A stretch of DNA of 64,000 nt from Aurelia coerulea (lineage: Eukaryota > Cnidaria > Scyphozoa > Semaeostomeae > Ulmaridae): the NCBI GenBank assembly GCA_039566865.1, contig CM076943.1, positions 17,167,501 to 17,231,500 on the forward strand, given 5' to 3'. Below the pieces are notes generated by a model. The model saw nothing but the letters and a program-made list of their open reading frames with translations, did no database searches and had not been told where the DNA came from. The position numbers were made by a program, and so were the translations under genes. Positions 250 through 59,473 of this stretch are shown piece after piece (position 1 is the first letter of the stretch; each line of letters opens with the position of its first letter).

Positions 250-391
250 CATGATATGTTTTGTACTTGCGCTTTATTTGGCTGCAGACAACTCCCATTA
301 AAATAAGGAGAATAACAATTACGACTGTCATTTGGAAAATGATTGATTGTGTATTTATAAATGAGATTGGTTGGTCTGCCTCTTTCTTTAT
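250..391 (-). CDS. Last transmembrane exon of the receptor-channel
   Basis: Acceptor CTTTGCCTTGCAG at 392 opens in phase 0 after the S2 exon. It encodes IKKEADQPISFINTQSIIF, then a strong membrane segment (MTVVIVILLILMGVVCS), then a basic stop-transfer QIKRKYKTYHG. This matches the last transmembrane helix after S2 in iGluR-like receptors. A good donor GTAAGT follows (244-249), so the cytoplasmic tail may continue in an exon left of the window. If unspliced, the frame stops at 221 after nine more residues. Confidence 0.72.
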
Positions 392-3300
392 CTGCAAGGC
401 AAAGTAGATGGTTTCAATTGTCAATAGTATACCAAAAATTAATCCACCGTTGTAGAAAATATTGCAAAAACTCGATGGGGGTTGCATAATTTGTAGCAAA
501 ATTTTCTATGAGGGCTTGATCGAGAATTCTCTTTTGTTGTCTAAAAGTTAGCTACTGTAGCAAGATAAAACTCAAATCCTTACTGGTTGCCAGAGCATGC
601 GGAATCACCCAATTTCATGCTTGTCAGCCAATGAGATCACCGCTTTCTAGCCCCTCGAGACAAACTCGGTCGTTTGAGGTGAATTTTCTAGTACCCTCAC
701 AAAAACTGAAATGGGTGTTAAAGTACTTCAGTTATTTGCACTTTTTTTAATAACTCAGTTGTGGGGATTTCCGTCCAGAATTGTTTACATGTTTAAACAC
801 ATAGCTTGTTTGGTGCAGGAGCTGCGCTCAATTTCCGGTCGAAGAATATTGACCTTCGTTGAAATATCTATAGAAATCGCTACAAATGAGATATACAGAT
901 AACAATTTCAGCGATTATGCATACTGACCTGGGCCGGGTTGTTCAAACCACGATTAGCATTAATCTTGGATTAAAGGCATGCTTATGTTGTCATTTGTAT
1001 AGTCTTAATCCGGTATTAGCCTAATACCAGCTTTGAACAACCGGGCCCTGAGCAATAACCCAAGCTCCTTCACTGCTATCACATCTCAAAATTGGAGGCA
1101 ATTTCTAACGATTTCTGGTAGAGACATCATTTGGGCCTTAGCTTTACTTCGCTTAGAACTCATTCCATTGCACTTGAAAAGTTATGGTAAAATTCTCAAG
1201 CTAAATAATGCACTTACCCATGACTCAGACACCAGTTTGAATTCGTTTGCCTTTTTTACTTCAGCAAATTTTTAAACCTCGGTCCATATTTTTCTCTGCA
1301 AAATCTCTCCGCTTCAAACATTAAACAGTGAGCTTTGACATTGTATCATAAGAGTCTCGCATCAAAGAACATTCCTATACCGGGTGTCCCAAAATGATGT
1401 ATCATTGTTTGATTGCTGACATGTCCATAGCCAATGAACCGATTTTCAAACACTTTATTTCATTTTATTGCCTAAAGCTAAATTGTATTTTAAGATGTTG
1501 GTTGTGGTATTACCAGTTTTTGAAAATCGGTTCATCGGTCATGGACATATAAGCTATCAAACGATGATACATCATTTTGGGACACCCGGTAGAACGATCA
1601 CACGCGGTTAAGCTGTTTAGCGAGGCACCTGTGAATTAGTTTCACGCATTTCGTTCTTTTCGTTCTGTTTTAAATAGATGCAAAACATAAAAAAAAAAAA
1701 TTTTGAGTTGCTAAAAAAGGTACCCGGTTTTGCTCTTTTGTTTGTTTGCATTGATTGATTGAGTCAAATGCGTGAAAACAATTCACGATTGCCTCGCTAA
1801 ACATATAAAGCGCATGAAATCGTTGATCTATAGGAATGTTCTGTGAAGCAAGACTTTTATGATATAATGTCGAAGTTCTCTGTTTGTTGCTTGAAGCGGA
1901 GAGACTGTACAGAGAAAAATATGGACCGAGGAAAGTTTTTGCGATTCACCCACAACTGATCGTTTCTTTTAAAAATTTGCTAAAGTAGAAAAGGCTAACG
2001 AAGTCAAACTGGTGTCTGAGTCATGGGTAAGTGCATTATTTAGCTCAAGAATTTTACCATAACTTTTTAAGTGTAATGGAATGAGTTTCAATTGAGGAAA
2101 AGCTTAGGCCCAAATGATGTCTCTACCAGAAATCGTTAGAAATTGCCTCCAATTTTGAGATATGATAGCAGTGAAGGAGTTTTGGTTATTGCTCAGGTCA
2201 GAATCACTGAAATTCTTATCTGTATATCTCATTTGTGTAGCGATTTCTATAAATATTTCAACGAAGGTCGATATTCTTCGAGCGGAAAATGAACGCAGCT
2301 CCTGCCCCAAACAAGCTATGTGCCTAAACATGTAAACAATTCTGGACGGACTTCCCCACAACTGATTTATCAAAAAATAGTGCAAATAACTGAAGTATTG
2401 TAGCATCCATTTCAGTTTTTGCGAGGGTACTAGAAAATTCACCTCAAACAACAGATTTTGTCTCCAGGAGCTAGAAAGTGGTGATCTCATTGGCTGACAA
2501 GCATAAAATTGGATTATTTCCGCATGCTCTGGCAACCAGTAAGGATTTGAGCCTTATCTTTACTGGCAGATCTTAGATCAAATGACGTGGGAAATTTGAA
2601 CATTTTATAAGGTTTATTCGATTTCTTTGTGAGATAAGATGAGCTGAAGACAAGCGGCGATGTAATTTTTACTAACATGCATCGCGCTCCAGTTACGTAT
2701 ATTAAGCGCGTCTACAGGGATTTGGTTAAAGACAGTAATAAATCGTATATAAAAGAGTTTTGATAATATAAATAGAAACAATGTCTAGTTCTTACCTTAA
2801 AACCAGCAGTTACATCTGCCAAGGTTTGTAGTATTTGGCGTTCCTCGACCTTTATATAGTCCTCGAACGTACTTGCAGCGTTAGTCATGTCATTTGACAA
2901 AATAAAACCGAAAGAGAAGGGATATTGTATCAGTTCAACAGCATATATATCTGGATGATTGAATACGTCAGGTTGAGATGCTGCCGATGCCACATCAACC
3001 AATGCTGACCGCACTTTGCGTCTTTTCAGTACGTCGGCAACATCCTCGATGGTTCGATATAATGCTTCTGCAACGACAAGACAAAATATTGCTCAAGCTG
3101 ATAAACAGACAAGATAGCTTGTTTAAAAAAATAACAAATTGGATTTGTCCTTGATTTATTTTCGTGGAATTTTTTTTATTTTGGAATTTTCTCAGGCTAA
3201 TTGGCCAAAGGTTTGGTTTAGAGGTGGACGCAAATTTGGACTCTAAAATTAACATTCAACTATCGAAGCACCCATATCAACGAACGAGATGTCTGTGTTC

Positions 3301-6300
3301 AAGGTATCTATTGAGGAATGTTTTGTGAATGATTCACCAAGGATTTATCTATTGAGGAATGTTTTGTAAATGATTCACCAAGGATTAAAGCTAAATTTTC
3401 ATGTCGCTTGAACCAAATGTATTTTGGGATACCCCTACTTGGAAAAAAAAGGATTACGAGTAAGGGAGCGGTCATTGTTAATCTTGGGTAACAGGGCTAA
3501 TGATAATTCTACACAATTAGACAACATTTCATACCCCGTCTTGAATATACAGAGTGTCCCAAAGAAATTTTGCCCCGTTTGCTTGAAGATTGCGACAAAA
3601 CGGCAAAATATTCTCGCCAAACTTTGTTATGATGTTGCTTTTCAGCTGTTCTAATAAATTTTGCTACCATTCCCGTAGAGATCCTTTCAAAAATCATGGA
3701 GCTATGACCTTCAGCAGACCAAATTTGACTGATGACTAAAACCAGTGGTCAATCATTTTGTCTTACTATTTTGCAGCGATAAATAGCTTCATGTAATGTA
3801 AGAAATATTTTCTGTAAGGTAACAAATAATTGAAATTTTTTTAATGATTATCAGAATTTTGAAAAAGCTACGGCATTAGGCTGCTGTTTTATTTCATTCA
3901 TGGAAATAACACCATGGAGCAAAATCATGCAACATTTTAGCGAGAATCTTTTGTCGTTTTTTTGTCATCTAAGACAAACGGGGCACAATTTTTTGGAACA
4001 CCATGTAGAAAAATAGGTTTTATACCCCTTTACCATTCAACAAAATGATTTGCAACCCCATCCAGAACTCTTTGAGGAAATATAAAAGATATATGCACAC
4101 ATACCAATTAGTCCCAGGCTATTTTCGTACCAATCCAGTGATTCATCATTTCCAGATGTCTGTTAAATTTACTTTTGAATGTTGACGGATGACTTCATAG
4201 AAATAATTTTGAAGCAAAATAGTTTTGCACCCATAGCAATTCTCATTGATAAGTTCGCACCCCCACAAAGTAATGGAAACAATGTTCATACTTCTATCAC
4301 AAATCTCCCCCCTCCCCGGTACCCAGGATTAAAAATGACCAATCCCTAACTGTATATTTTCTGACTTTGACATGAGGATTACTTAATGGATATGCGTGCA
4401 TACAAGATCTCGAAGAATGGCCAATTTATCACATCTTATGCATTATTGATAGAGTAAAATTTGAGGAATACTTACTGGTATTTACTTTCGCATTTCGACG
4501 AATTGCAATTTTGTGACCAGCTGAGTCGTGAATGGCTGCAATCTGAAACGTAGATGCTCAATCTGATAAACAATTGTGCTAAAGATGACAGGGAATATTT
4601 ACCATGATCTTTGGCGTTTGAAAGAATTGTGAATGATTTGATTTGTCAATTTACCATGTAACGCAATGGATCGTGGTAAAAATTCCATGGTGCCATCCGC
4701 AGCGTGATCATCTATCTAGCTTCTAATTTCCTAACAGACTCCAAATGACATAGATCAGCGGTACTACAAGAATTCAAACCCAAATACTAGCCTGCTACAG
4801 TATGTTCATTCAACTGATGGACAATTCTCAGTTCACGGGCTGATTAACAATCATTTACCTTGTGAAAAGGCGATACCTTTGTCATGAAACTTATATAAAG
4901 AAGCTTTCAGGAACGTTCCGTGATAAATGGTGCTATTTTGTGATATATAAAGCTGGTTGAAAGAGGGCGTCTCTGACACAGTGTGATCTTAATGCCAAAA
5001 TCGAAATTCTCATTTCTTGGCTCAGAAATGTCCGATTTGTATGAAATCAACTTTATTTACCAAATGAATATAACAGCTTTTAACGGATTGCCAGCCAGAA
5101 GAAATACGGATTCTAATTCTACACTTAATTGGACATGCTCAGGGGCAGCACGATTTTGGCATTTTTGGCATCAAAATGTGGAAATTTCATTTTTACACTT
5201 GAAAAACAAAAAAGTGACTCAAAGTGACTCTACCAGACTCACTTTTTGTGGAAGTACCATGTCTCAGCTGAAAATCTACCAAGGGGATCGTGCAGAATTG
5301 TACAGAAAAAAAAGTTATACGCAATTAAAAAAGTCAAGTGTACCTCTTGATTTTGAAGAAAAAGTTGGGCTTTTTTTGTTGCTTTCTAAGCAACATGAAA
5401 TTGAATGGAATTGTTGAAAGTAACTGCTAGTGACTTCAATTCATCTTTTGGGGAAATTCAAATCGTAAAATTGAAATAAAGCTTTTTCACTGCTCCTCCG
5501 CAGAGACAGATAATAAAGCAGTGTAGGCTGCTTCTTTTTTATCATTTCTTCACACAGCGTTAGGTCATCAACTTTATAACGTCCAAGATAACTTCATTAT
5601 GAAGTGCACTAACTTTTAAGCTAGTTACATCTAGAAAACTTGATAAAAGACTATGATTTAGTTATTATTTACGAATCGTATTTTGTTTCTTCAATAAAAC
5701 TTCATTCGTACATAGACTGAATCAGTGATTCCTCCTCATTGGAAACATGGGCAACAGGAGAAGAGTATCCTTTTTTGTTGACATATCTTGTCTCACATTG
5801 TAATTACCGGAGCTGATTTTGTTAGCATTCTGATAAAAATCTCATGAATGCTGGCTTAAACAGAAGTCTGTCTCGGTCTTTCAAATGCAGGACGGAGGAA
5901 CAATTGCTATTTGGTCTGAGAGTGGAGTTGAAGCATGGAACAAACAGGTATGCAGTTTCCGTAAGGGGGGGGGGGAGGGGGCAGGATGTAGAGCGAGACG
6001 GAATTCTGTACAAAAGTCAACATTCATGAAATTTTTGTAAGAATGCTAAAAAAATCAGCTCCGGTAAGTACAAAGGTGAGACAAGATATGTCAACAAAAA
6101 AGGACACTCTTCTCCAGTTTCCCATGTTTCCAACGAGGAGGAATCACTGATTCAGTCTATGTACGAATGAAGTTTTATTGAAGAAATAAAATACGATTCG
6201 TAAATATTAACTAAATCATAGTCTTTTATCAAGTTTTCTAGATGTAACTAGCTTAGAAGTTAGTGCACTTCATAATGAAGTTAACCTGGACGTTATAAAG

Positions 6301-9300
6301 TTGTTGACCTAACGCTGTGTGAAGAAATGATAAAAAAGAAGCAGCCTACATTGCTTTGTTATCTGTCTCTGCGGAGGAGCAGTGAAAAAGCTTTATTTCA
6401 ATTTTACGATTTGAATTTCCTCAAAAGATGAATTGAAGTCACTAGCAGTTACTTTCAACAATTCCATTCAATTTCATGTTGCTTAGAAAAAAAGCCCAAC
6501 TTTTTCTTCAAAATCAAGAGGTACACTTGACTGTTTTAATTGCGTATAACTTTTTTTTCTGTACGATTCTGCACGATCCCCTTGGTAGATTTTCAGCTGA
6601 GAAGTGTTACTTCCACAAAAAGAGATTCTGGTAGAGTCACTTTTTTGTTTTTCAAGTGTAAAAATGAAATTTCCACATTTTGATGCCAAAAATGCCAAAA
6701 TCGTGCTGCCCCTGTGCATGTCCAATTAAGCGTGAAATTAGAATCCGTATTTCTGCTGGTTGACAATCCGTTAAAAGCTGTTATATTCATTTACTAAATA
6801 AAGTTGATTTCATACAAATCGGACATTTCTGAGCCAAGAAATGAGAATTTGGATTTGGCATTAATTAGCCAATTAGAGGAAGATTTGATAAAATTGCCAT
6901 GAAATTGACACTTGTAGATTTCACCAAATTTTGACCCTGATTTTCTCTGGGCTCGCAATTCCGATTTCAATGAAATGTTTTTTATTTTGATGGCCAACAT
7001 ATCTAGTTTTCAGTGGTATGATCAGTGGTCAGAAATAAGCAACTTCATTTTTGGGTATTTCTTCCACTTGCTTGGCCTGTAAAAAATGGGTTAGAGTTCA
7101 TAACTACATGTTATTTGCCGTGTAATGCCGTAAGGACAATAATTCAATAGATATACCTCTTGACCATATAACTGGTTGTCTTTTGCTACAGAGACAGTCA
7201 AGGAAGTTGCGAGCTTGGCAGAAAGAAGCGATAAAGTGATCAAACCAACAATCATCCACACCATCGCAAAAAGGCGTGCAGGCTTCGATTTTGGCGTCAG
7301 ATCTCCATTTCTATGAAAATAAGAAATATCTTATGGTCCACGAAAGGAGTTATTTTTTTGGTCCAAATTGGCTACAAATGAGTTTCAAAATGGAAAAAAT
7401 GCTAAATATAGATAAAGGGCAAGTTGTATGTTTTATTCTTAATTGGCTCATTTGTCTAAAAGTGGAGGTAATTTTAGGGCTTTTGTTAGTAGGCACGAGT
7501 AACCATAGATTTGCGATGACACAATGCAAGAAAACAGACTGTTCTTCTTTTGGAATAATGGGTTTACGCGTAGGCTAATCTAGACCAGGCTTTTTGAAGC
7601 ATCCTCAGGCCTGGGGGGGGGGGGCTAAATTAGCTCCCCCCTCAGAACTCCGAATTAACAAGGGCTAGCAAGATGATTCTTGGTCATATTATGTAAATTA
7701 ATGTGAAACTTCTGAATATCTAATTCATGTTACTCTAATTGTTGTATTTTCTATGACGTCATCAATGTTCTTTGTTTTGTGCCAAAAACAGCACTGGTAC
7801 AGATTTACTGTAGGAAATCTCTTAAGAGGAATATTATGCTTCTTATAACTTTAATTGACAAATTATTTATTACCTAAATTCATTAGAGATATAAGTGATG
7901 AATGACGTCATACAAAATAAAAACAAAAAATAGGTTATTTCCATATTGTCTTATTGAATTATGGTTGCACTAAAATGTTCATCCATTTATCTCACTTTTG
8001 TCTTGAATAAAACAAACAAGATATTAAAGCTACTTTTTGAGAAATTGTTATATGTCCAAAACTACATGAGATATCGATTCAAAGCCATTTCAGGTCTTCA
8101 AAACAACGAGGAACGTGCTTCATTTTGCCTGAGAATATCTTTAAATACCTAGGGACTATAAACTTGCCCTGAAGACTTCCTACTGGGTTGCCTATTCCTT
8201 AGGTTAAAATGAAGCACGCTCCTCGTTGTTTTGAAGATTTGAAAATGGTTGTAAATCGATCCCCTGTTTTTACGACTATTTGAGGATTTCAGACATGCCC
8301 TTTTCCTCAAAATCCTTAATTTTGGAAATTTACCGTGCGAAAAAAAATTCCAAAAAATACCAACGTATTCTCATCGGATCCGTCCCCCTTCCTTCCAGAC
8401 CACTAAGATATGGAGAGAGCGAAGGGGGCTTCGCTGTCTGGAAGGAAAGTAGGATCATGGTGCGAACCGTCGCTGAGGGAGGAGTGGTGGGTCGATTTTT
8501 TACTGTGCACTGCTTGTTGCTCACAAAGAAGGCTGAAATGAGCTCGGATTTTTCCTATATACTGACCTATTCCCTAGGGGCTACGAAACTGCTCTCCCCA
8601 GGCCTCTCAAGCAGTCTCGGGTGTGTAGAACATTAGAGTCTTGGAATTTCGTGAGACTTCTCCGGTGAGAATACCAACGTATTCTCATCGGATCCGTCCC
8701 CCTTCCTTCCAGACCACTAAGATATGGAGAGAGCTTCGGGGGCCGCAGATCTGGACTAAACGAGAAATGGAGACATAAAATAAACACACTGAATATGTTT
8801 CCAAACATCATACATAATATAGGGCCCCCTCCATTACTCAAGTAGAATAGGTTCGTAGAAGATCGGCGCCAAATGAAAACAACGAGGAGCACAAATGTTA
8901 TGAACATTGCAAGTTATAAAAGATCATCGTACTCGGAAAATTACATAATTTGGAGACACCTGTGAATTTACTCGTTTTCTATCTTATTTCCTATGTGCCT
9001 TCTTGGGTTGAACTTATCGGTCTCTGACGGGTTGGGCTGGAGGGTTTCCCCCTAAAATTACATCAAGATAATTTGTCTTTAAACACTAATCCTCAGTTCA
9101 CTCAGATAGTTGCAGAAGGATGACAAACAATAATATTTTGGAATTAATAATTAAGACAAATGAGAAGGAAAACCCTCCAACCCAACCACTCAGAACAGCA
9201 GCTTAGAGCCGTGTATTAAGGTCTTTAGTTAGGCCCCCGAGTGGTTGAGAAGAAGTAAGCGATCCTTCAAATTGCTTTTGAAAAACTCCTTGCAATGCTT

Positions 9301-27300: not shown

Positions 27301-30300
27301 TTCCCAATCCTTTTTAACTCTTTCTCATAGGAGCTATAAGAAATGATCAATAGGCATTTTGCGCATTGTATCATTTTGCCTACGTACGTCATAAGGGGGC
27401 TCCTGTAAAGCGCTATTGTGCTCCCTCTATATTGAGGCCATTCTCTAATAAACCCCTCCCCTCTGAGCCAATATTCGTCTAAATTTTACCGGTTGTTATT
27501 GATGACTGGCTTATGGTATTTTTTGACGGAACAATGGTTGTTGCAAAGTTTGAAACATTACGAGTAGATTCATATGTTGAAATGATGATATAGGAAGATG
27601 CTGGCGATAATAACATCGAGGGTGTTGGTTTTTTTTCTGTGGCTGGAAAGAAGACGCCAAAATCTTTCAGCAAGACAACACCGACAAGAATAATGATTAA
27701 ACCATCTTCTAAGAAGTGCATCTTAATATACCTTTTTACTTGCTAGAAGAGAGGTCAGGATCGAGCTTCCAAATCTGGTAAGTTTTGAGAAGGTTAGCGA
27801 AAGCTCGACCTCCTTTCTTGGTAGAAAAACTGTTATCGTCTAACTGTCGCTTGAAGTTCCCTTCGGATCTCAAGAACACTTTTTTCAGCGAGTTAATGAA
27901 CGATAACTTTGCACAAATTGACTTACGAGTGGCTCAATTTACACACTGGCAAGTTCTTATTTGCCTCTCGGCCTTGTTCCTTGTTATTTTCGTTCATCGT
28001 TAGCTGATTTTGTTCTATAACAGTTTCAAAACAAAGTGCGAGCATACGAGAGTTTCATTTTGCAACTTTACCAACAGAAGTTAGCTGTTTTTAACCGTTC
28101 ATATTCAAATGCAAGAAAAATAGGCTAAAGATGAATGAAATCTACGAGAAACAAAGCCAAAAGACCAATGAAATCTGCCTGTGTCTAAATTGAACCATTC
28201 CTAACTCACTTTGCGCAAAGTAATTGACAACAGAATTTCTAAAGAGTTTTGAGATCCACAGCAACTTCATCCCACAGCTAGCAGTGTATCCACAGAGAAC
28301 GGGGGGTTGTGCTTTCGTTTTCCTTCCCAAACTTTACCAGATTTGGACAGTCGATCCAAACCACTTCTAAAGTAAATGATTTATCCTGACTTTCTTTGAG
28401 AATTTGATTTCAACTAATTCTTCAATATTAAAGTTCCCCGCTCACTGACTCTCGACGAAAACAATGAGTTTTACAATAAGACTTTTCTTCCATAGATGAG
28501 ACTTTCCAAATCTCCAATGTCATTTTGAGAACGCAAGACTGACACAGCTGCTGGCCAGAATTTTGTGTAAGTAACGTAATTAAATGAATATATTGATTCC
28601 TGTCATTTATCGTCCCATTTCTAGAGTAAGGCTGTCAATTGATCTCCAATATATAACAAATATGAGGCGTACACTTCCTCCAACTTTGGAAGATGAATAC
28701 ATTTAAAATCGATAAATCTCAGAGCATTGTAAAATAGGATGAACATATCCACAATAGTAAAAGTTTAGATCGTACCATTCATGGTTGTTGATATGTTTCT
28801 TGCAGTAATTGCTTGGGTAGTTATGGTACTTGCATCATACTGGGCTGTTGAAGGTATAGGTACGGCCTTTTGTTTAGATGATGTTGATAATGACATCAAA
28901 GGTGTTAGTGTTGGTTCTGGGACTACCATTGCAAAAGAAAAAAGCAGAATGCTTCAGCAAGACGATACTGACAGGAAACTTAAATGAACTAATTTGCCAC
29001 TTTCCTAGTATTGTATCCTAATTATGACTTGCTTTGACCTCAACTGATTGTTCCATTCTTAAACTGCTAAGTGCATTCAAAGGATAATATTTACAATAAG
29101 GACGATTATTTTGAGATGAAACTTCCAAATTCTTCAATGTCACTTTGAGGACATAAACTGAGACAGCTGCTGGCCAGAATTTTGTTTCAGTACCACAGTG
29201 AAATGAAAATATTCATTCCTGTTATTTATCGTTCCATTTCTATAGTTAAGGCTGTCAATTGATCTCCGTGATTTAAAGAATTCGAGGCGTAAACTTCCTC
29301 CAACTTTGGAAGATGAAGAAATTTAAAATCGATAAATCTCAGTGCATTGTAAAATATGATGAACATATCTAAGATAGTAGAAGTCTAGATCTTACCATTG
29401 GTCGTTGCTAAGTGACTTGCAGTAATTTCTGGGGTAGATATGGTACTTGCATCATACTTGGCTGTTGTAGGCGTAGATACGGATGTTTGTTGAGATGCTG
29501 CTGATAATGATTTCAAATTTGTTGGTGTTGATTCTGGGACTACCACTGCAAAAGAAAAAACAAAAATGCTTCAGCAAGACGACACTGACAGGAAATTTAA
29601 ACGAATTAATTTGCCATTTTCTTAGTATTGTATCCTAATCATGACTTGCTTTGACTTCAACTGATTGTTCCATCCTTAAACTGCCAAGTGCATTCATAAG
29701 GAAGATTATTTTGAGATGAAGCTCCCCCAATCTTTAATGTCACTTTGAGGACATAACATAAGATCCTTTTGGATGATTACAAAGTCTGTCCTGAGCTAAA
29801 CAAGCATAAGAATATCTGAATGTTGATTTCTTCATAACCCCAAATGACCGTAGATGCTGTTTTTAGCTACAGTCAGAGAGATGAGTGTTGCTGCTAAAGT
29901 CGCCTTCAATGGAAAATCGAGCGCCTTGTATAAGGACAAGAATCGCCTCAAAGGCAATATTTTGGTCTTTATGTCAAACGAGAATGATACGCAAAAATCA
30001 AAAGTCATTACCCCTAGTTTGCTTAGTTCGTGCACGAAACTATTGGTGCATCTGTGTCAAATGAGATGTCATGTGAGATTTACGATAACGCAAAAATACT
30101 TATGCAGAACCCTACAGAACGTTTCAATTGTTGCTATTCGCGGGCATCTAATTTGAGACAAGCAGTCACGAAGATAACCTCTGTGCAAAATGATATGCAT
30201 GAAGATGTTTTGGTTCAGTGTGATCTCGTGCCTTCCCCCAGTCAATGGCGCCATAGACCTTTTAGCTATTCAGGAAAGAATCAGAATCGAACAAACTTTT

Positions 30301-30887
30301 GCTACACTTTGTAGAATTTTCGAATGTGCACAATAGTGAAAGAAGCTCTAACGCCACTCGATCGAATGTAACGTATAAAAATGTATAAAAATAACGTTCG
30401 ATCCAGGCTCCTTTTAGAATAGCTAAAAGGTCTATTGTTTGCTGGGATTCTGCACCTTTCTGTAGCTGTGTAGGAGGGGGATCCTTCTATCTTCGGTGAT
30501 GCTGCGAATGCTAGCCTCTGTGCAGGCCACCAGTTACATCATCCTCTAAAGTTGACTTATTTGCATAATGAGTACTATCAATAAGTGGCTAATGATTCGT
30601 TCGTTCTAGAAAACGATTGTTTTGACATAATTAAGCTGCTAATGAAGTCAAGAACGTGCCAATTCTGGGGAAATTTGTTGTTGTGCCAGGGTAAACATCA
30701 TGGTAATTTATCCATCTTATGGTGTCAAATCTGTCTAACATGAAATAAGCCGACGTCAAATGTTGCTATAGGATCGCGGGAAACTTCTGTCTTGTATGCG
30801 CTTTATGTGCGCTTTCTTTATTTCAGTGCCAATTAGCAGAGATAAAACGTTAATCAATCGCTTTAACGAGCGTGACGGAAGTGGGTT

Positions 30888-30918
<31 letters not shown>

Positions 30919-33900
30919 TCCTGACAGCCTGACATCGAAGCCCCTTCTTAGATTACAAAGTTGGACTTTGTAATCAAAAACTGAGACAGCTGCTGGTCAG
31001 AATTTTGTGTAAGTCACGTAGTGAAATGAAAATATTCATTCCTGTAATCCATCGTTCCATTTCTATAGCTAAGGCTGTCAATTGATCTCCAAATTGTAGA
31101 AAAGATGAGGTGTAGACCTCCTCCAACTTTGGATGATGACGGCATTTAAAGTCGATAAATCTAAATGCATTGTAAAAAAGGATGAATATATATAAAAGAA
31201 TAGAATTCTAGATCTTACCATTGGTCGTTGCTAAGTGACTTGCAGTAGTTTCTGGGGTAGATATGGTACTTGCATCATACTTGGCTGTTGTAGGGGTAGA
31301 TACAGAAGTTTGTTGAGATGCTGCTGATAATGATTTCAAATTTGTTGGTGTTGATTCTGGGACTACCACTGCAAAAGAAAAAACAAAAATGCTTCAGCAA
31401 GACGATACTGACAGGAAACTTAAATTAACTAATCCGCCACTTTCTTAGTATTGTATTCTAATCATGACTCGCTTTGACTTCAACTGATCGTTCTATTCTT
31501 AAACTGCCAAGTGTATTCATAAGGAAGATTATTCTGAGATGAAACTCCCCGAATCTTCAATGTCACTTTGAGAACATAAAACTGAGACAGCTGCTGGTCA
31601 GAATTTTGCGTCAGTAACGTAGTGAAATGAAAATATTCATTCCTGTAATCCATCGTTCCATTTCTTTAGCTAAGGCTGTCAATTGATCTCAAAAATGTAG
31701 AAAATATGAGGTGTAGACCTCCTCCAACTTTTGATGATGAAGGTATTTAAAATCGATAAATCTAATTGCATTGTAAAATATGATGAACATATCTAAAAGA
31801 GTAGAAGTCTAGATCTTACCATTGGTTGTTGGTGAGCGGCTTGCAGTAATTTCTGGGGTAGATATGGTACTTGCATCATACTTGGCTGTTGTAGGCGTAG
31901 ATATGGATGTTTGTTGAGATGCTGCTGATAATGATTTCAAATTTGTTGGTGTTGGTTCTAGAACTACCATTGCAAAAGAAAGAACAAAAATGCTTCAGCA
32001 AGACGATACTGACAGGAAACTTAAATGAAGTAATTTGCCACTTTCTTAGCATTGTATTCTAATCATGACTTGCTTTGACTTCAACTGATCGTTCTATTCT
32101 TAAAATGCCAAGTGTATTCACAAGGAAGACTATTTTGAGATGAAACTCCCCAAATCTTCAATGCCATTTTGAGGACATAAAACTGAGACAGCTGCTGGCC
32201 AGAATTTTGCGTCAGTAACGTAGTGAAATGAAAATATTCATTCCTGTAATCCATCGTTCCATTTCTTTAGCTAAGGCTGTCAATTGATCTCCGAATTGTA
32301 GAAAAGATGAGGTGTAGACCTCCTCCAACTTTGGATGATGACGGCATTTAAAGTCGATAAATCTAAATGCATTGTAAAAAAGGATGAATATATATAAAAG
32401 AATAGAATTCTAGATCTTACCATTGGTCGTTGCTAAGTTGCTTGCAGTAATTTCTGGGGTAGATATGGTACTTGCATTATACTTGGCTGTTGTAGGCGTA
32501 GATATGGATGTTTGTTGAGATGCTGCTGATAATGCTTTGAAATTTGTTGGTGTTGGTTCTGGGACTACAATTGCAAAAGAAAAAACAAAAATGCTTCAGC
32601 AAGACGACACTGACAGGAAACTTAAATGAACTAATTTGCCACTTTCTAATCATGACTTGCTTTGACTTCAACTGATCGTTCTATGCATTCATAAGGAAGA
32701 TTATTTTGAGATGAAACTCCCCAAATCTTCAATATCACTTTAAGGACATAAAACTGAGACAGCTGCTGGCCAGAATTTGCGTCAGTAACGTAGTGAAATG
32801 AAAATATTCATTCCTGTAATCCATCGTTTCATTTCTATAGTTAAGGCTGTCAATTGATCTCCAAATTGTAGAAAATATGAGATGTAGACCTCCTCCAACT
32901 TTGGATGATGAAGGTATTAAAATCGATAAAAAAGGATCAATATCTAAAATAGTAGAAGTCTAGATCTTACCATTGGTCGTTGCTAAGTTGCTTGCAGTAA
33001 TTTCTGGGGTAGATATGGTACTTGCATCATACTTGGCTGTTGTAGGCGTAGATATGGATGTTTGTTGAGATGCTGCCGATAATGATTTCAAATGTGTTGG
33101 TGTTGGTTCTGGGACTACCGTTGTAAAAGAAAAAACAAAAATGCTTCAGCAATACGACAGTGACAGGAAACTTAAATTAACTAATTTGCCACTTTCTTAG
33201 TATTGTATTCTAATCATGACTTGCTTTGACTTCAACTGATTGTTCCATTCTTAAACTGCCAAGTGTATTCAAAGGATGATATTTACAATAAGGAAGATTA
33301 TTTTGAGATAAAGTTTCTCAAATCTTCAATGTCACTTTGAAGACACAAAACTTAGACAGTTGCTGGCCAGAATTTTTTGTAAGTAAAGTAGTCCTGTGGA
33401 AATATTCATACCGGTAGTATACATCTTTTTCTGACTATACTTCGATGCTATCAGTAGATATCTGCGTGGCCGTAATCGTTCAACTTTACAACATGACAAT
33501 ATGAAGACAATTCAAAATCGTTAAATTTTAGTGCATTGTAAAAGATGAGCATATCTGAAGAAGTAAATTTATAGCTCCTACCATTTGTTGATGATAAGTG
33601 GCTTGAACTAATTTCTGAGGTAGTTACGGCACTTGCACCATGTTGGGTTGTTGCAGGGGTAGGTACCGATTTGCTTTGAGATGCTGACGATAATGTCGTG
33701 GCTGTTATAGCGTCTAGGTTCACTGCAAAAAAAACATCAAAATTTTCAGCAAGGCGACACTACTCGTATTTTTTTATAAGAAATTACTCTTAAGAAACTT
33801 TAGGCTCAATTTCTCGAAAGTTAAGAAACAACCCTACCTGAATTCGAAAAGCCAAGCAACTTTTGTAATTTGTAGTTTTCACTTTTCCAGCGAACTCAAT

Positions 33901-38544: not shown

Positions 38545-38577
<33 letters not shown>

Positions 38578-40218
38578 TGAAAAACAAAACTGTTAAAAGC
38601 AAAAACATAATAATAATAATAATAATGATAATAAACTAAACCACCATCATGTGTTAACAGAAAAATAATATAAAAACACAACTGTTAAATGCCTCAAACG
38701 TTTCGATAAAAATCTTCGTCAGTGTCATATAATAATAATAACAATAATAATAATAATAAGAGAAATATTTATCCAGGGTAAAACCTTGTCGATACTTCAA
38801 GTACTGTGATCAATAAGGGCCCTGTTTGAAAATTAAAGAAAAGTAAAACTATCAATATACAAAGTACAATGTAAAAAGCTTAAAATGTCTAAAAACATTT
38901 ATCGTTAAAATCCTTGGGTAGAATAGTTATGCTCTTTGTAGATGTTCTTTAAGTCGTTGCTTAAAAACAACGATGGAATCCAGACCATATGGGTATTGTG
39001 GACACGATTTGTGTCGATCGTCTCCACAATACCTGGCCTAAATGTTACTAATCTGGGAACTAGTTTAGAGCGCGGCACTGTTATAAAACCCTAGGCCGTT
39101 ATGAATTTGAGTAAGCAAGAATGGCTGCCGAAGTAAAAGAGCAGAGATACTCATGAAATGAAGACGAGCAAGGTAACGAACTACATGCGTTCACTTAGTA
39201 ACATTTAGGCCAGGTATTGTGGACACGATCGACACAAATGGAATGGTGTCCACAATACCCATGTCCAGACTCCGAATGTCAAATGGTAGCTCGTCAATTT
39301 AGATGAGCCTTGGAACCAGAAGGATTTTTTCGCAGGTTCTGTTCTGACCCTTGAACGCGCAGTGTAGCTTTATTGCCTCTAGTACCATAATTATGGCTAA
39401 CTCTCTCAACATAGGACGCTAAGTGATCTTATAATTGTCAGTATCTTTGCTTCAGACATAAAAAATTTTACTAGGTTAGTTGTTATAGTGAAAGTTTTGG
39501 AATGCCATTATTTCAGAAGGATGCAGTTTTTCTCTGACAAACCAAATTTTGCTGAATTAGTTGAACTTTGACCCGTGCTTTACTTCTCTTTTAGATTTCT
39601 ACCTAGATTTTTCAAAAGTTTAGATAAGAAAATTCTTGAACTACACGTGTTTTCTCATAAGAAACTAAGAAGTTAGGCCTGACAGTTTCTTAAAATTATC
39701 AGATTTTGAGAACTCAGAGTTTCTTACGAGTTTCTTAAACGTTCCATAACAATCTTCATGTTCACTATCTGTGCCCTTATGAACATTTAAAAACAAGGTT
39801 TTTTAAGCCTTTCAAATGTTTAGACATTACTCAAGTACCTAACGAGTAATATGATACAGGAAACAAGTGAAAATAATTCAAAATTTGTTAAGGATTTCCT
39901 TTGCAAAAATAAGTAGTTTCTCAACCTATATTTTCCCAGTACTGAAGTTTCTTAATTTTTTGGCGATCTGAGAGTTGAGTTTCTTATGGGCCGTTTCTTA
40001 TAAACAAAATACGTGTAATCATTTTGTAAATGAAGAGCTTATACCTTTCAAGTATAAACCAAAGAATACTTCTTTTACGCATTTTTCGCCATTTTCGTTT
40101 CGTAATGTGCCATCATTGTGCTTGTATAACGTGAGAATTGGATCCCCTTTGGACAAATACAGTCTGCCGGTATGACTATTAACTGATACATGGTACTCGC
40201 TATGTTTGATCTGGATGC
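250..40218 (-). CDS. Multidomain adhesion-type ionotropic receptor / K+-channel-like gene (25 exons, 5' end missing)
   Basis: Twenty-five minus-strand exons join with matching phases across 40 kb. Order: two Cys-containing N-terminal exons, eight Ser/Thr-rich stalk exons, TSP1 x3, SEA-like segment, FN3 x3, receptor S1 half, TM1, pore loop, TM2, S2 half, TM3. Ectodomain exons are almost all phase 1-1, as expected for shuffled modules. The FN3-3 exon ends in phase 1 and the next good acceptor (15003) opens in phase 1 on the ligand-binding domain, so the adhesive and channel parts look like one gene. Known from families: TSP1, FN3 and SEA are extracellular, and S1-pore-S2-TM is the iGluR plan. 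Inferred: a surface channel with a long adhesive stalk, about 1,360 residues without the missing signal exon. The alternative is two adjacent genes whose phases match by chance. Splice sites are by eye. Confidence 0.72.
932..1049. mobile_element. Short MITE with GGGTTGTTCAAA ends and 3-bp duplication
   Basis: Ends GGCCGGGTTGTTCAAA and TTTGAACAACCGGGC are inverted. The matching place in the right arm (2190-2200) reads GAGCAATAACC-type sequence joined directly to the ACTGACC side, giving an empty site; CCT flanks the element on both sides. Confidence 0.75.
1381..1588. mobile_element. MITE with CCGGGTGTCCC ends and TA target duplication
   Basis: CCGGGTGTCCCAAAATGATG at the left and its near-perfect inverse at the right extend as ~75-bp inverted arms. 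Flanking TA on both sides; the other arm of the surrounding palindrome shows the empty site CCTATAGA, confirming the insertion and the TA duplication (Tc1/mariner style). Confidence 0.85.
2796..3067 (-). CDS. Main S2 ligand-binding exon
   Basis: 272-bp exon (phase 1 to 0), acceptor CGTTGCAG, donor GTAAGAAC. It encodes ALYRTIEDVADVLKRRKVRS, ALVDVASAASQPDVF, YPFSFGFILSND, and KVEERQILQTLADV. In the iGluR/PBP fold the ALVDV aspartate sits where the ligand amino group is bound; FSFGFIL is the return strand. No stop or frameshift. Next is the last TM exon. Confidence 0.76.
3548..4012. mobile_element. Degenerate TIR element, related copy at 26690-26935
   Basis: Starts AGAGTGTCCCAAAGAAATTT, continues TTGCCCCGTTTG, and ends with the inverse CAAACGGGGCACAATTTTTT. 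The part up to ATTTTGCAGCGATAAATAG is repeated directly at 26690-26935 beside the first TSP1 exon. No transposase. Confidence 0.7.
4476..4542 (-). CDS. S2 ligand-binding exon (short)
   Basis: 67-bp exon (phase 0 to 1) between acceptor GTTTCAG and donor GTAAGT. It encodes IAAIHDSAGHKIAIRRNAKV, continuing S2 directly from YGQE. This is too short to stand alone; its assignment rests on phase agreement with both neighbours and on the IAAxxxSxGHxxAxRRNAK pattern common to the S2 lobe of such receptors. Confidence 0.7.
4983..6863. repeat. 1.9-kb foldback element (second large palindrome)
   Basis: Arms 4983-5848 and 6021-6863 are inverted copies with a ~170-bp centre containing a G-run. Matching peptides from opposite arms (e.g. 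QLKIYQGDRAE, SSVPLDFEEKVGLF) show the open frames at 4983 and 6483 are the same sequence read from both sides. It lies in the intron between the filter/TM2 exon and the short S2 exon. Confidence 0.88.
7157..7310 (-). CDS. Filter end, TM2 and S2 start of the receptor-channel
   Basis: 154-bp exon (phase 2 to 0), acceptor TTTCATAG. The first residues are NGDLTPKSKPARLFAMVW, then TM2 (MIVGLITLSLLSAKLATSL), then VSVAKDNQLYGQE. Joined to the previous exon, the filter is T-V-G-N-G-D. GDxTPxSxxGRxFAxxW after the filter is characteristic of K+ channels; SLTV...YGQE matches the step into S2 of this receptor class. Donor GTATATC. Confidence 0.78.
8066..8265. repeat. Hairpin element
   Basis: Inverted arms CTTCAAAACAACGAGGAACG (8097) and the complement near 8215-8235, with a ~60-bp loop. 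Noncoding. Confidence 0.75.
8357..8736. repeat. Pair of direct repeats
   Basis: ATACCAACGTATTCTCATCG through GATATGGAGAGAGC occurs at 8357-8421 and again at 8671-8735, 314 bp apart. Probably internal repeats of a dispersed element. No gene seen from 7311 to 9528. Confidence 0.8.
9529..11690. repeat. 69-bp minisatellite, about 31 copies
   Basis: Unit core GCTAACGATGTCATGC, AAAACGCAGATCTTTCGTTG, CTGAAAAACATGCATAAAAT. Period is exactly 69 bp over most of the array, so minus-strand frames run for many copies (23-residue repeats such as LALGLEFYACFSATKDLRF). Several units carry 1-bp indels or are shortened (e.g. ~10930-10990) and break those frames, so they are not genes. It lies in the intron between the S1/TM1 and filter exons. 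Confidence 0.95.
12247..12341 (-). CDS. Pore-loop exon of the receptor-channel
   Basis: 95-bp exon (phase 0 to 2). It encodes DYRENADEFPKSFPIGVCSG, then IYWAYVTMTTVG: the pore helix and first half of a K+-channel-like selectivity filter. WAYVTMTTVG matches the W-x-x-x-T-M-T-T-V-G pattern of voltage-gated and prokaryote-type K+ channels rather than the pore of vertebrate AMPA/NMDA receptors. The filter is completed by the next exon through a split Gly codon. Confidence 0.78.
12786..14071. mobile_element. 1.29-kb TIR element with TTA target duplication (PIF/Harbinger-like, nonautonomous)
   Basis: GGGTAAATTTATACGATGAG at the left is inverted at the right (CTCATCGTATAAATTTACCC). Both sides are flanked by TTA. 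A TTA/TWA duplication is typical of PIF/Harbinger elements. No transposase frame. The interior contains a second G/C-rich inverted segment (13.09-13.69 kb). Confidence 0.8.
14554..15003 (-). CDS. Receptor S1 ligand-binding half plus TM1, with one surplus base
   Basis: 450-bp exon, acceptor CTTGTAG, donor GTAAGT after WAL. The first frame reads ETCAYPSVIHTNF, PYVYRNKSGHANGLFPEIL and DVGYVDVSFPIFG, the typical start of an iGluR/PBP-like S1 lobe. The second frame reads EQLTKVPVVQHPGVV, then TM1 (LFIIIILLMVIGGFGIWAL). The two frames meet near 14735-14750 and are offset by one base. Exon length also disagrees with flanking phases by exactly one base. Dropping one G of a GGAGG run would restore continuity. 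Assembly error, recent inactivation, or frameshifting are all open. Confidence 0.72.
16137..16566. mobile_element. Foldback MITE; second related copy at 38290-38470
   Basis: Inverted ends ATCAGGGAGCGCGCA and the inverse of TGCACGTTCCCTGAT. The internal arms ACAATAGCAGGCCGATCG and complement pair. The right half is repeated at ~38300-38465 (TGACATTCCTGGACCCCCTG). Confidence 0.75.
16907..17209 (-). CDS. Fibronectin type III domain exon 3
   Basis: 101-codon phase 1-1 exon (acceptor TCCCTAG, donor GTAAGTCG). FN3 landmarks: PSEAPEKVEI, LDVCWKQV, LLGYKIRIAL, KITITELQPNSRYSVSV and LAFNELGDGVSS. Ends GGA G in phase 1; the next acceptor on the strand opens the receptor ligand-binding domain in phase 1, making the last split codon Glu. 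This junction is the key link between ectodomain and channel. Confidence 0.83.
17636..17760. repeat. GAGTTGC heptamer tract (with an inverted partner at 18255-18300)
   Basis: Imperfect (GCGAGTT)n, e.g. TTACGAGTTGCGAATTGCAA; the inverse GCAACTCGCAG lies at 18255-18300, on the other side of MITE A. Confidence 0.7.
17842..18161. mobile_element. CCCGGGG-ended MITE A with internal ACACCCTGTCGCATAAT repeats
   Basis: Starts CCCGGGGGGGG...TTACTTGAC and ends with the inverse. The interior is five to six imperfect copies of ACACCCTGTCGCATAATTTT. Same end type as the elements at 19433 and 45985. Noncoding. Confidence 0.75.
18475..18900. repeat. GTTCCATATCG-rich repeat region
   Basis: Repeated TTCCATATCGCTC and ACACGGGAATG words with inverted copies (GGAACGATC). 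Likely a diverged MITE. Directly abuts the FN3-2 exon donor. Confidence 0.5.
18912..19202 (-). CDS. Fibronectin type III domain exon 2
   Basis: 97-codon phase 1-1 exon (acceptor TTTTAG, donor GTAAGTACTG). FN3 landmarks: PSQPPNEVFATGTS, TVTVWWKHSS, VGTFIMYNSS, TSIVITGLHPVASYTISI. The last strand has two cysteines (SICQ and GPCQ), probably a domain-specific disulphide. Several NxS/T sites. The domain follows FN3-1 without linker exons. Confidence 0.8.
19433..19758. mobile_element. CCCGGGG-ended MITE B with TTATACCAATTTTGCG repeats
   Basis: Ends CCCGGGAGGGGGTACTTGAC and inverse. The interior has about six ~32-bp imperfect repeats around TTATACCAATTTTGCGAAAA. Lies in the intron between FN3 exons 1 and 2. 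Confidence 0.75.
20069..20347 (-). CDS. Fibronectin type III domain exon 1
   Basis: 93-codon phase 1-1 exon encoding one FN3 domain. Landmarks in order: APSNLTITPLEES, the core Trp (IQAEWDSV), VSGYIIFYREM, KAKITALKPNTRYSIRV and VVAYNEHGNGVAS, the tyrosine-corner and final strands of FN3. Acceptor TTTTCAG at 20348; the donor is the weak GTATAC after TCA C, chosen because it keeps phase 1 and precedes a stop. Extracellular beta-sandwich. Confidence 0.83.
21462..23390 (-). CDS. SEA-like segment encoded by three exons
   Basis: Exons 23281-23390 (phase 1 to 0), 22610-22692 (0 to 2) and 21462-21613 (2 to 1) chain only in this frame. The third exon starts by completing a Trp codon from the second. 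Together they encode ~115 residues: NLEIEQAWDSKM, a helix-like FQKRVKIN, then TKIESIKKHTLW, STIVTLNISFTGL, and LQDSLENDNYLGKMKI. The alternation of helix and strand and the terminal LQDSL..LGKMKI resemble SEA domains, which sit near cell membranes and sometimes self-cleave. I see no clear GSVVV cleavage site. The SEA call is tentative; the exon chain is better supported. A 308-bp dispersed repeat sits in the intron at 21893-22200. Confidence 0.5.
21893..22200. repeat. Dispersed repeat, second copy at 30628-30960
   Basis: Both copies share CATAATTAAGCTGC, CCATCTTATGGT, AATCTGTCTAACATGAAATA and AGTGCCAATTAGCAGAGATA. The second copy sits in the ~1.2-kb insertion that splits the stalk-exon array. 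Confidence 0.8.
23828..24085. mobile_element. MITE with TAGTTTAAACATC ends
   Basis: Left CTAGTTTAAACATCATAG and right GATGTTTAAATCAAGTCTAA are inverted; CGGCAGAA words inside pair as well. Confidence 0.55.
24300..24812. repeat. ~510-bp foldback
   Basis: Arms carry CATAAATCCCTTGTTTGCTC / complement, AAAGTGAGGTTGA / complement, and GCGCTGTTTC / complement, about a centre near 24555. Confidence 0.75.
25100..25270 (-). CDS. Thrombospondin type 1 repeat exon 3
   Basis: 57-codon phase 1-1 exon, same length as repeat 2. It has no Met, so it is easily missed. TSP1 motifs: WTEWTNWTAC (three Trp), CNTGMHRRWRFC, NPAPLFGGNDC and VTCNIRKCP. Sequons NWT and NVT suggest N-glycosylation. Acceptor TTTTAG at 25271, donor GTGAGAG. 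It ends in phase 1, matching the first exon of the SEA-like segment. Confidence 0.83.
26043..26213 (-). CDS. Thrombospondin type 1 repeat exon 2
   Basis: 57-codon phase 1-1 exon. It has a complete TSP1 core: FSAWSSWSTC, CGGGQQTKTRKC, NPAPQHGGYDC and EICNVQQCPG. Both WxxW tryptophans and the six cysteines are present. The C-terminal half NPAPQHGG resembles the next repeat (NPAPLFGG), so the two are probably a duplication. Donor GTATAT, acceptor TTTTAG. Confidence 0.85.
26501..26653 (-). CDS. Thrombospondin type 1 repeat exon 1
   Basis: 51-codon phase 1-1 exon (acceptor CCTTAG, donor GTAAGATT). It shows the TSP1 pattern: two stacked tryptophans (YSIWSRWSKC), then CSVSCNGGTRTRMRFC, then a second half with FCNGRTDETTTC and CNVQPC. 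Six cysteines are spaced as in TSP1 domains, slightly short against the usual 55-60 residues. TSP1 repeats are extracellular and often bind glycosaminoglycans; WxxW Trp residues are commonly C-mannosylated. Joins in phase to the next TSP1 exon. Confidence 0.82.
27490..27642 (-). CDS. Diverged eighth Ser/Thr-rich stalk exon
   Basis: 51-codon phase 1-1 exon, acceptor CTTTCCAG, donor GTAAAAT. It is Ser/Thr/Pro-rich (ATEKKPTPSMLLSPASS near the start, SQSSITTG at the end) and ends at the same relative place as the seven-copy array, so it is probably an older member. It lies between the array and the first TSP1 exon and would complete a ~390-residue glycosylated stalk. Confidence 0.55.
27770..28360. 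repeat. Degenerate inverted repeat between stalk exons
   Basis: 27776-27975 matches the complement of 28140-28335 at low identity (e.g. GTGGCTCAATTTACACACTGG versus ATGGTTCAATTTAGACACAGG). Frames at 27785 and 28142 are by-products. Confidence 0.55.
28776..33722 (-). CDS. Seven tandemly duplicated Ser/Thr-rich stalk exons
   Basis: Seven homologous exons, in transcript order 33582-33722, 32971-33114, 32421-32564, 31820-31963, 31219-31368, 29396-29545 and 28776-28922. Each has 47-50 codons, phase 1-1, and a donor in the context AATG|GTA. A typical copy reads PTPTNLKSLSAASQ, then TSISTPTTAKYDAST, then ITASNLATTNG. There are no cysteines; Thr, Ser and Pro dominate, as in O-glycosylated mucin-like stalks. 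The duplicated genomic unit is about 600 bp (starts 550-620 bp apart) and includes intron sequence, so these are recent whole exon-intron duplications. A ~1.2-kb insertion separates the 29.4 and 31.2 kb copies. Copies at 28.8, 31.8, 32.4 and 33.0 kb lack the AG used by copies at 29.4 and 31.2 kb and would use TAG six bases further in, keeping phase but dropping two Val codons. Confidence 0.7.
29750..30970. repeat. Insertion splitting the stalk-exon array
   Basis: The regular ~600-bp exon unit is interrupted here by ~1.2 kb. It contains a small inverted pair (AGACCTTTTAGCTATT at 30257 and complement at 30417), the second copy of the 21.9-kb repeat and a (TTTC)n tract at 30892-30920. No credible gene. 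Confidence 0.65.
34250..34440. repeat. Dispersed repeat related to 3215-3430 and 33950-34000
   Basis: Shares the TTTGCAGGTGGACGCAAATTT-like start and a TTTTGGGACACC end with 3215-3430. Because of this match the frame at 33790-33999 was not called as an exon. No other gene seen from 33723 to 36707. Confidence 0.6.
36001..36329. repeat. Two direct copies, period 173 bp
   Basis: ATGGGACTGAAACAGT...CTGCCGA.GTAAGAAATGCAAACA...CAATATATACC occurs at 36001 and again at 36174. The first copy follows a polypyrimidine-AG and reads VIYGTETVSFRC on the plus strand, which looks Ig-like but is too short to call. Confidence 0.7.
36708..36848 (-). CDS. Exon 2 of the multidomain receptor, Cys-containing linker
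   Basis: 47-codon exon with acceptor TTTTGTAG and donor GTAATTC, phase 1-1. Three cysteines lie in the contexts SCTDSF, DMCWGR and LPCHLG, with N-glycosylation sequon NAST. Aromatic, polar and Cys-rich composition fits an extracellular module closing with the Cys of exon 1. It ends GPQGFIE and joins in phase to the first Ser/Thr-rich exon at 33722. Family not recognised. Confidence 0.6.
36849..40044. other. Intron with no recognised exon
   Basis: AT-rich. Contains a MITE half (38290-38470), an ATAATA microsatellite (38497-38757) and an inverted pair CCATATGGGTATTGTGGACA (38987) / TGTCCACAATACCCATG (39246) around a ~240-bp centre. Confidence 0.6.
38497..38757. repeat. (ATA)n/(ATAATG)n microsatellite
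   Basis: Near-continuous ATAATAATAATGATA words in two blocks separated by ~100 bp. The minus-strand frame through it (IIIIII...) is an artefact. Confidence 0.9.
40045..40218 (-). CDS. Exon 1 (first identified) of the multidomain receptor, unknown N-terminal module
   Basis: 58-codon exon, acceptor TTTTAG at 40219, donor GTATAAG at 40044, phase 1-1. It encodes a beta-rich stretch with motifs HVSVNSHTGRLYLSKG and TLRNENGEKCV, one cysteine and no transmembrane segment. The alternation of short hydrophobic runs with GRLYL/GTLRN is loosely like a beta-trefoil or carbohydrate-binding module, but I do not recognise the family. It joins in phase to the 36.8-kb exon through an Asp codon split across the junction. 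The upstream phase-1 exon with the signal peptide was not identified. Confidence 0.6.
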
Positions 40219-50984: not shown

Positions 50985-51155
50985 TTAAATATGCCACTTG
51001 GTCCCCAGGGACCTGCTAGGGGTATGCAAAGAGTTATACTAGGCCATTTAGGATCCCCAGGGAATATCCAGATTGAGGTCAAATTTGAAAACAAGGCGTT
51101 CTAGCCAGTGAGAATACTTATTTATATATTAACTGGATGCTTCTTTCTATCACAG

Positions 51156-51290
51156 AGTTTGTAACATGTAAAGATCTGGCTGCTTCTTTATGCAAAGAAG
51201 AACTCATCGACCATTGCGAATCTTTTCCAGGACAAATAGAATATTTTGGATTGAATTTATCGTGCAAGAAAATGTGTGGATTATGTACAC
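51156..51290 (+). CDS. ShKT-domain exon
   Basis: 45-codon phase 1-1 exon, acceptor TTTCTATCACAG, donor GTAAGTCA. Six cysteines in ShKT spacing: VTCKDLAASLCKEEL, DHCESFPG, LSCKKMCGLCT. ShKT domains are named for a sea-anemone K+-channel peptide but are mostly modules of secreted enzymes and matrix proteins in cnidarians, so a toxin role is not implied. A start exon could be the one at 43233; later exons would lie inside or right of the mobile element at 51766. Confidence 0.72.
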
Positions 51291-59347: not shown

Positions 59348-59473
59348 GTTTATAGGTTTTTGAACTTCAATTATCGATCTAGCAAAGATCACCGTGATCC
59401 AGGCATTCCCATTAGATTAGAAACTGATTGTTTCTTTGGCCCCTTAAGAACACGAGTGAACCCTATTCCGGAT

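What the first reader, a model, noticed from the sequence alone, without database searches (positions are those of the whole stretch)
250..40218. Adhesion-type ectodomain fused to a glutamate-receptor-like K+-channel module in one gene
Phase-consistent minus-strand exons encode Ser/Thr stalk, TSP1 x3, SEA-like, FN3 x3, then S1-TM1-pore-TM2-S2-TM3. The plan combines an adhesion-GPCR/mucin-like ectodomain with a ligand-gated channel. It could couple matrix or cell contact, or mechanical force, to ion flow. I know of no described receptor with this full order. Seen: exons and phases. Known: module families. Inferred: one transcript, and its role.
Basis: partly seen in the sequence, partly recalled or inferred. 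Interest (0 to 1): 0.88.

Follow-up and report, generated by a model that had tools for sequence, protein, structure and literature searches.

The report
Coral adhesion-type ectodomain on receptor channel
This window, likely from a coral relative, holds exons that likely form one gene for a predicted cell-surface protein whose adhesion-type outer part is joined to a glutamate-receptor-like, potassium-channel-like pore; five predicted coral proteins and one metagenome protein share the join between the last outer (FN3) domain and the channel, but this copy has a shifted reading frame and an altered pore filter, so it may be damaged or may pass ions differently.

Summary
I fitted a 24-exon minus-strand model (40218 to 250) with AG/GT borders and agreeing phases: S/T-rich stalk, TSP1 x3, SEA-like, FN3 x3, then S1-TM1-pore-TM2-S2-TM3. 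Two things were missed. The S1 exon has a net +1 frame change, so no single frame is open. The filter reads TVGNGD, while all 29 pore-bearing proteins retrieved read TVGYG. The FN3-to-channel join is real: six proteins (three Acropora, Oculina, the octocoral Dendronephthya, one metagenome) have FN3 running straight into the same '(E/K)TC' start of S1. The Dendronephthya protein also has SRCR, LamG and a SEA-like stretch ahead of FN3. No retrieved relative has TSP1 plus channel, and no transcript could be checked; a gene border between SEA and FN3-1 stays possible. I read it as an anthozoan variant of the GluR0/AvGluR1 kind, a K+-pore glutamate-receptor-like channel with an adhesion-type ectodomain, not described in the papers our searches listed. 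Contact or force gating is untested; this copy may be a pseudogene or hold an assembly error.

The parts
40045..40218 (-). exon X0, 58 aa, no recognised domain; membership uncertain
   Evidence: AG/GT borders, phase 1-1; no Pfam match
33582..33722 (-). stalk exon ST1, Ser/Thr-rich
   Evidence: AG/GT, phase 1-1
28776..33114 (-). six repeated Ser/Thr-rich stalk exons ST2-ST7 (33114-32971, 32564-32421, 31963-31820, 31368-31219, 29545-29396, 28922-28776)
   Evidence: phase 1-1 each; neighbours 81-97% identical at DNA level
27490..27642 (-). stalk exon ST8; an in-frame ATG at 27721 with a hydrophobic stretch could be an alternative start
   Evidence: AG/GT, phase 1-1; upstream ATG
26501..26644 (-). 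TSP1 domain 1
   Evidence: Pfam TSP_1 E 1.6e-11; exon edges
26043..26213 (-). TSP1 domain 2
   Evidence: Pfam TSP_1 E 2.1e-13; exon edges
25100..25270 (-). TSP1 domain 3
   Evidence: Pfam TSP_1 E 1.3e-10; exon edges
21462..23390 (-). SEA-like domain in three exons (23390-23281, 22692-22610, 21613-21462)
   Evidence: phases 1-0, 0-2, 2-1 fit; Pfam SEA 20.3 bits, cut-off 26.4
20069..20347 (-). FN3 domain 1
   Evidence: Pfam fn3 E 3.2e-15; exon edges
18912..19202 (-). FN3 domain 2
   Evidence: Pfam fn3 E 3.7e-8; exon edges
16907..17209 (-). FN3 domain 3, spliced to S1 at 16907/15003
   Evidence: Pfam fn3 E 9.7e-12; join matches relatives
14554..15003 (-). S1 half of the predicted binding domain plus TM1; contains a net +1 frame change
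   Evidence: translation in two frames; aligned to P0001 and P0029
12247..12341 (-). pore helix and start of selectivity filter (...YVTMTTVG)
   Evidence: phase 0-2; Ion_trans_2
7157..7310 (-). rest of filter (NGD) and TM2
   Evidence: phase 2-0; Ion_trans_2
4476..4542 (-). S2 first exon (IAAIHDSAGHKIAIRRNAKVNT)
   Evidence: one of nine phase 0-1 candidates, the one that aligns with relatives
2796..3067 (-). S2 second exon
   Evidence: phase 1-0; aligned with relatives
250..391 (-). linker and TM3; gene continues beyond the window in phase 1
   Evidence: hydrophobic stretch read by eye

Best explanation
The minus-strand exons from 40218 to 250 likely form one gene, predicted to encode a receptor channel of a likely anthozoan whose adhesion-type ectodomain (Ser/Thr stalk, TSP1 x3, SEA-like, FN3 x3) stands directly on a predicted GluR0/AvGluR1-type module of split clamshell domain and K+-channel pore. 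Shown: the exons, their borders and phases, the TSP1, FN3 and pore domains, the FN3-to-S1 join in six other proteins, the broken frame in S1 and the TVGNGD filter. Inferred: in intact relatives four subunits would form a pore whose opening is controlled by closure of the S1/S2 clamshell, with the FN3/adhesion stalk taking the place of the amino-terminal domain of ordinary glutamate receptors and fixing the channel at a cell or matrix contact; opening a TVGYG pore would let K+ out and quiet the cell. Inferred for this copy: the Y-to-N change in the filter would weaken K+ selectivity, by analogy with the non-selective NaK filter TVGDGN, if a protein is made at all, since the S1 frame is broken in this assembly.
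Against: The S1 exon is not open in one frame. The filter differs from 29 of 29 retrieved pore proteins. One Cys of each of two conserved pairs near S1 is missing in the window. No relative with TSP1 plus channel was retrieved. The exons were picked because they are open and fit, so that openness is partly by construction; stalk, TSP1 and X0 have no homologue in this arrangement. Alternative gene edges exist around 27721, 21316 and 20420. No Pfam binding-domain hit in S1 or S2; the S2 profile search also listed tyrosyl-tRNA synthetases (E 0.074 and 0.68). The P0001 models have low mean confidence (52.3 and 51.6); the Foldseek rows have rmsd 10-16 A and query TM-scores 0.21-0.26; the alignment behind that model included 17 proteins with a bacterial-type binding domain, which may have lent it the fold. 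The arginine that holds the amino-acid carboxylate in GluR-type sites is not conserved in the anthozoan members (role recalled), so an amino-acid ligand is doubtful.
Confidence: 0.68

Rival explanations
1. Two neighbouring genes: a mucin-like TSP1-SEA surface protein ending near 21316, and an FN3 x3-channel gene starting near 20420, as in Oculina and Acropora.
For: Exon SEA3 reads on 49 aa with a hydrophobic stretch (KD15 2.41, the highest of the 6 read-throughs that reach 15 aa) to a stop; FN3-1 is open upstream to an ATG 24 codons before, KD10 2.06. P0002 and P0004 begin, by eye, with a signal-like stretch and then FN3.
Against: The 21462/20347 junction has AG/GT borders and fitting phase. 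P0029 has a SEA-like stretch ahead of FN3 in one chain. The leader upstream of FN3-1 is broken by a Lys and includes the pyrimidine tract of the acceptor; ST8 and TM3 have stronger hydrophobic upstream stretches (3.71 and 2.62), so such stretches also occur elsewhere in the model.
Confidence: 0.22
2. The copy is a decaying pseudogene or non-functional allele of the anthozoan FN3-channel family. This is compatible with the one-gene reading.
For: Net +1 frame change in S1, filter asparagine where relatives have tyrosine, two family cysteines missing.
Against: The other 23 exons stay open over about 1260 codons with AG/GT borders, although they were chosen for that. The two missing cysteines are one from each pair, as if lost as partners (inference). 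A single assembly error could explain the frame.
Confidence: 0.3
3. The joined order is chance: unrelated exons strung together by eye.
For: Tandem repeats lie in the introns, and exon X0 and ST1 have no homologue found.
Against: Homology runs from FN3-1 to TM3 against P0029 (E 2e-70, pairwise).
Confidence: 0.03

Closest known systems
Predicted 'uncharacterized protein LOC114520285', Dendronephthya gigantea (P0029)
   Same: Adhesion domains, SEA-like, FN3 array, then the same channel module in one predicted chain
   Different: SRCR and LamG in place of stalk and TSP1; more FN3 domains; filter TVGYGD; 28% identity over the searched region
Predicted uncharacterized proteins of Oculina patagonica and Acropora (P0002, P0004, P0005, P0006)
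   Same: FN3 directly before (E/K)TC-S1-pore-S2, with TM3 in P0002, P0004 and P0005
   Different: No TSP1 or SEA found by Pfam; TVGYGD; 26-29% identity
AvGluR1 of the rotifer Adineta vaga
   Same: Eukaryotic glutamate-receptor layout with K+-channel filter (PMC12332018, PMC12226733 and PMC3483616, passages)
   Different: No adhesion modules (recalled); filter TVGYG type; not compared by sequence here
GluR0 of cyanobacteria
   Same: Binding domain with a K+-type pore; binding cores 1ii5 and 2pyy match the model of relative P0001
   Different: Only two transmembrane domains (PMC12332018, passage); no ectodomain modules (recalled)

Membership tests
GluR0/AvGluR1-type receptor | Clamshell binding domain split in two by the pore | tested here: inconclusive
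GluR0/AvGluR1-type receptor | K+ filter TVGYG | tested here: not met
   Window reads TVGNGD; P0001-P0029, 29 of 29, read TVGYG
GluR0/AvGluR1-type receptor | Arginine binding the ligand carboxylate in S1 | tested here: inconclusive
   Present in P0009, P0014, P0022; not conserved in the animal rows (P0001 and P0002 have an Arg a few columns away); in the window the frame change falls in this stretch
GluR0/AvGluR1-type receptor | Acidic ligand residue in S2 | tested here: met
   Asp invariant in 7 of 7 rows of A6, window included; its role is recalled
Ionotropic glutamate receptor | Third transmembrane helix after S2 | tested here: met
   TM3 exon 391-250, hydrophobic by eye, aligned with relatives
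Ionotropic glutamate receptor | Current gated by an amino acid | not testable with these tools
   No electrophysiology
K+ channel pore | Ion_trans_2 pore domain | tested here: met
   47.6 bits, cut-off 22.5
Anthozoan FN3-channel proteins | FN3 followed directly by (E/K)TC and S1 | tested here: met
   Window, and 6 of 9 animal or metagenome pore proteins; of the other three, P0003 starts inside S1, P0007 and P0008 have no FN3
Anthozoan FN3-channel proteins | CxC and CxxC pairs in S1 | tested here: not met
   Window keeps one Cys of each; CxC in the 6 FN3 members, CxxC in these and P0003 (7 of 7); P0007 differs
SEA domain | Pfam cut-off | tested here: inconclusive
   20.3 bits against 26.4
Adhesion GPCR | GAIN/GPS and seven-helix domain | tested here: inconclusive
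   No such Pfam match in the pieces scanned, but both gene ends are unseen

The most novel reading that the evidence does not exclude
Anthozoans carry a family of adhesion-channel hybrids in which contact or matrix binding by a long TSP1/SEA/FN3 ectodomain directly steers a clamshell-gated K+-type pore, and this member has turned its filter to TVGNG and so conducts other cations: an adhesion receptor that is itself the ion channel.
Probability: 0.2. Interest if true: 0.88.

Novelty: new variant of a known kind. Interest (0 to 1): 0.62.

Why it matters
K+-pore glutamate receptors are seen as links between bacterial GluR0 and animal iGluRs, with a rotifer protein as the animal example in the passages I saw. 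An anthozoan family that keeps this pore and has exchanged the usual amino-terminal domain for adhesion modules would show the same channel core being reused under a different sensor. It would make contact-controlled ion flow testable with a single protein.

Tried and rejected
The genome search on the window's own genome did not complete, so copy number, the gene's missing ends, paralogues and the source species are unknown; that it is an anthozoan rests on its nearest relatives (26-29% identical), and a hydrozoan (Clytia, P0007) has the channel too. One scan of the viral collection gave no relative. The scan of bacterial and archaeal genomes gave 18 loci that encode a relative, mostly of the pore part, not studied further. 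Rfam gave no match at gathering scores. NCBIfam gave only weak K+-channel matches far below cut-offs, and one unrelated. Ten paper searches listed no paper that I recognised, from titles and abstract starts, as describing an FN3 or TSP1 ectodomain on a glutamate-receptor-like K+ pore; some listings were cut (for example 20 of 39) and only open-licence papers are held. A signal-peptide exon between FN3-3 and S1 was sought: none in the strict scan (the same scan gave 0 in the 23.8 kb upstream of X0, 1 in 22.8 kb and 1 in 14.2 kb elsewhere on the minus strand, and 6 in 64 kb of the plus strand), one ATG with two donors in the loose one. Of the 11 hits, ten (P0030-P0039), most of them named as Sidekick, lack the pore motif and were left out of the counts. 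The second model was not searched because its confidence in the channel part was low. In the 50 VIA-align rows shown all are binding-protein-type domains or GluR0 cores; no full-length channel chain is among them.

Full report
Gene model. I read the window's minus strand in all frames and fitted exons by splice sites and phase. The result is 24 exons: X0, eight stalk exons, TSP1 x3, SEA in three exons, FN3 x3, then S1-TM1, pore, TM2, S2a, S2b and TM3. Every exon is flanked by AG and GT. Stalk, TSP1 and FN3 exons are all phase 1-1; the SEA and channel exons mix phases and still agree, taking the S1 exon as ending in phase 0 after its frame change. Up to the end of FN3-3 the joined frame runs 1017 codons without a stop; the five exons after S1 add about 243. 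These exons were chosen because they are open, so homology, not openness, is the independent check.

Domains. Three TSP_1 and three fn3 domains pass Pfam's cut-offs, as does Ion_trans_2; Lig_chan misses its cut-off by about 1 bit. The SEA domain scores below its cut-off. X0 has no match. No binding-domain family was hit in S1 or S2. Stalk exons ST2-ST7 are near-identical tandem copies, 81-97% between neighbours.

The S1-TM1 exon is 450 nt long, which does not fit its flanking phases, and it is open in no single frame: the first part reads up to about FPIF in one frame and the rest from about SSEEHPEQ in the next. The relatives align to both parts, so both are coding in origin. I cannot tell an assembly error from a damaged gene. 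Second, the filter across the pore/TM2 junction reads TTVGNGD, while P0001-P0029 all read TVGYG (29 of 29). In the NaK channel, TVGDGN is non-selective and TVGYGD is K+-selective (passages of PMC9822992), so loss of the tyrosine would be expected to weaken selectivity; that is an analogy, not a test of N. Third, the six FN3 relatives have CxC at the FN3/S1 border, and these and P0003 have CxxC further on; the window keeps one cysteine of each.

Relatives. The first protein search (935-residue query, channel part) returned one protein, P0001. A profile of the window and P0001 returned 28: P0001-P0008 from animals or metagenome, 17 proteins with a bacterial-type binding domain and a pore (P0009-P0025, three of them listed under bacterial names), and three other pore proteins (only the 7997 candidates sharing most words were scored). 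FN3 is found by Pfam in P0001, P0002, P0004, P0005 and P0006 and not in P0003, P0007 and P0008. A third search with the long model, region FN3-3 to TM3, returned 11, of which only P0029 has the pore. P0029 is a 2449-aa predicted octocoral protein: SRCR, LamG, a SEA-like stretch (18.1 bits, below cut-off), an FN3 array, then the channel. Thus 6 of the 29 pore-bearing proteins carry FN3. None carries TSP1 in the Pfam scans made (P0009-P0028 were judged from the listing only).

One gene or two. The FN3-3/S1 join is the best-supported part: six of the nine animal or metagenome pore proteins have FN3 followed at once by (E/K)TC, as here. Of the other three, P0003 starts inside S1, and P0007 and P0008 reach upstream without FN3. 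The SEA/FN3-1 join has parallel support from P0029 only. At that intron there are also a possible hydrophobic end for the upstream part and a possible start for the downstream part, so a two-gene reading keeps about one chance in five. Upstream of ST8 there is a further in-frame ATG (27721) with the strongest hydrophobic stretch of the set (KD10 3.71), a possible alternative start. The TSP1 and stalk exons are tied in by phase and position alone.

Verdict. A real and unusual architecture, with an independently supported FN3-channel core, belonging to a mainly anthozoan group that I did not find described in the ten paper searches. This copy departs from its relatives in the filter and in an S1 frame break. 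I file it as a variant of the GluR0/AvGluR1 kind by layout, not as a proven K+ or glutamate receptor.

Noticed in passing
58103-59416 minus: Two open pieces in different frames; the first matches Viral_Rep (PF02407, E 1e-6): likely an endogenous circular-DNA-virus replication gene fragment beside satellite repeats.
   Followed up: partly
52425-54242 plus: 606-aa ORF with a Myb/SLIDE-like C-terminus just below cut-off; looks like a mobile-element gene by eye.
   Followed up: partly
63254-64000 minus: GIY-YIG domain (E 8.7e-6) on an ORF running off the window; resembles the end of a retroelement.
   Followed up: partly
9521-11685: Tandem array of a 69-bp unit inside the intron between pore and TM2 exons.
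   Followed up: no
54419-58015: Satellite-like arrays of 117/171/288-bp periods.
   Followed up: no
51089-51430 plus: Cysteine-rich stretch resembling a ShK motif by eye; no Pfam match.
   Followed up: partly
21316-21462 minus: Reading past the SEA3 donor gives 49 aa with a hydrophobic stretch and a stop: a possible ectodomain-only isoform.
   Followed up: partly
27642-27721 minus: In-frame ATG and hydrophobic stretch just upstream of stalk exon ST8: a possible alternative start with signal-like leader.
   Followed up: no
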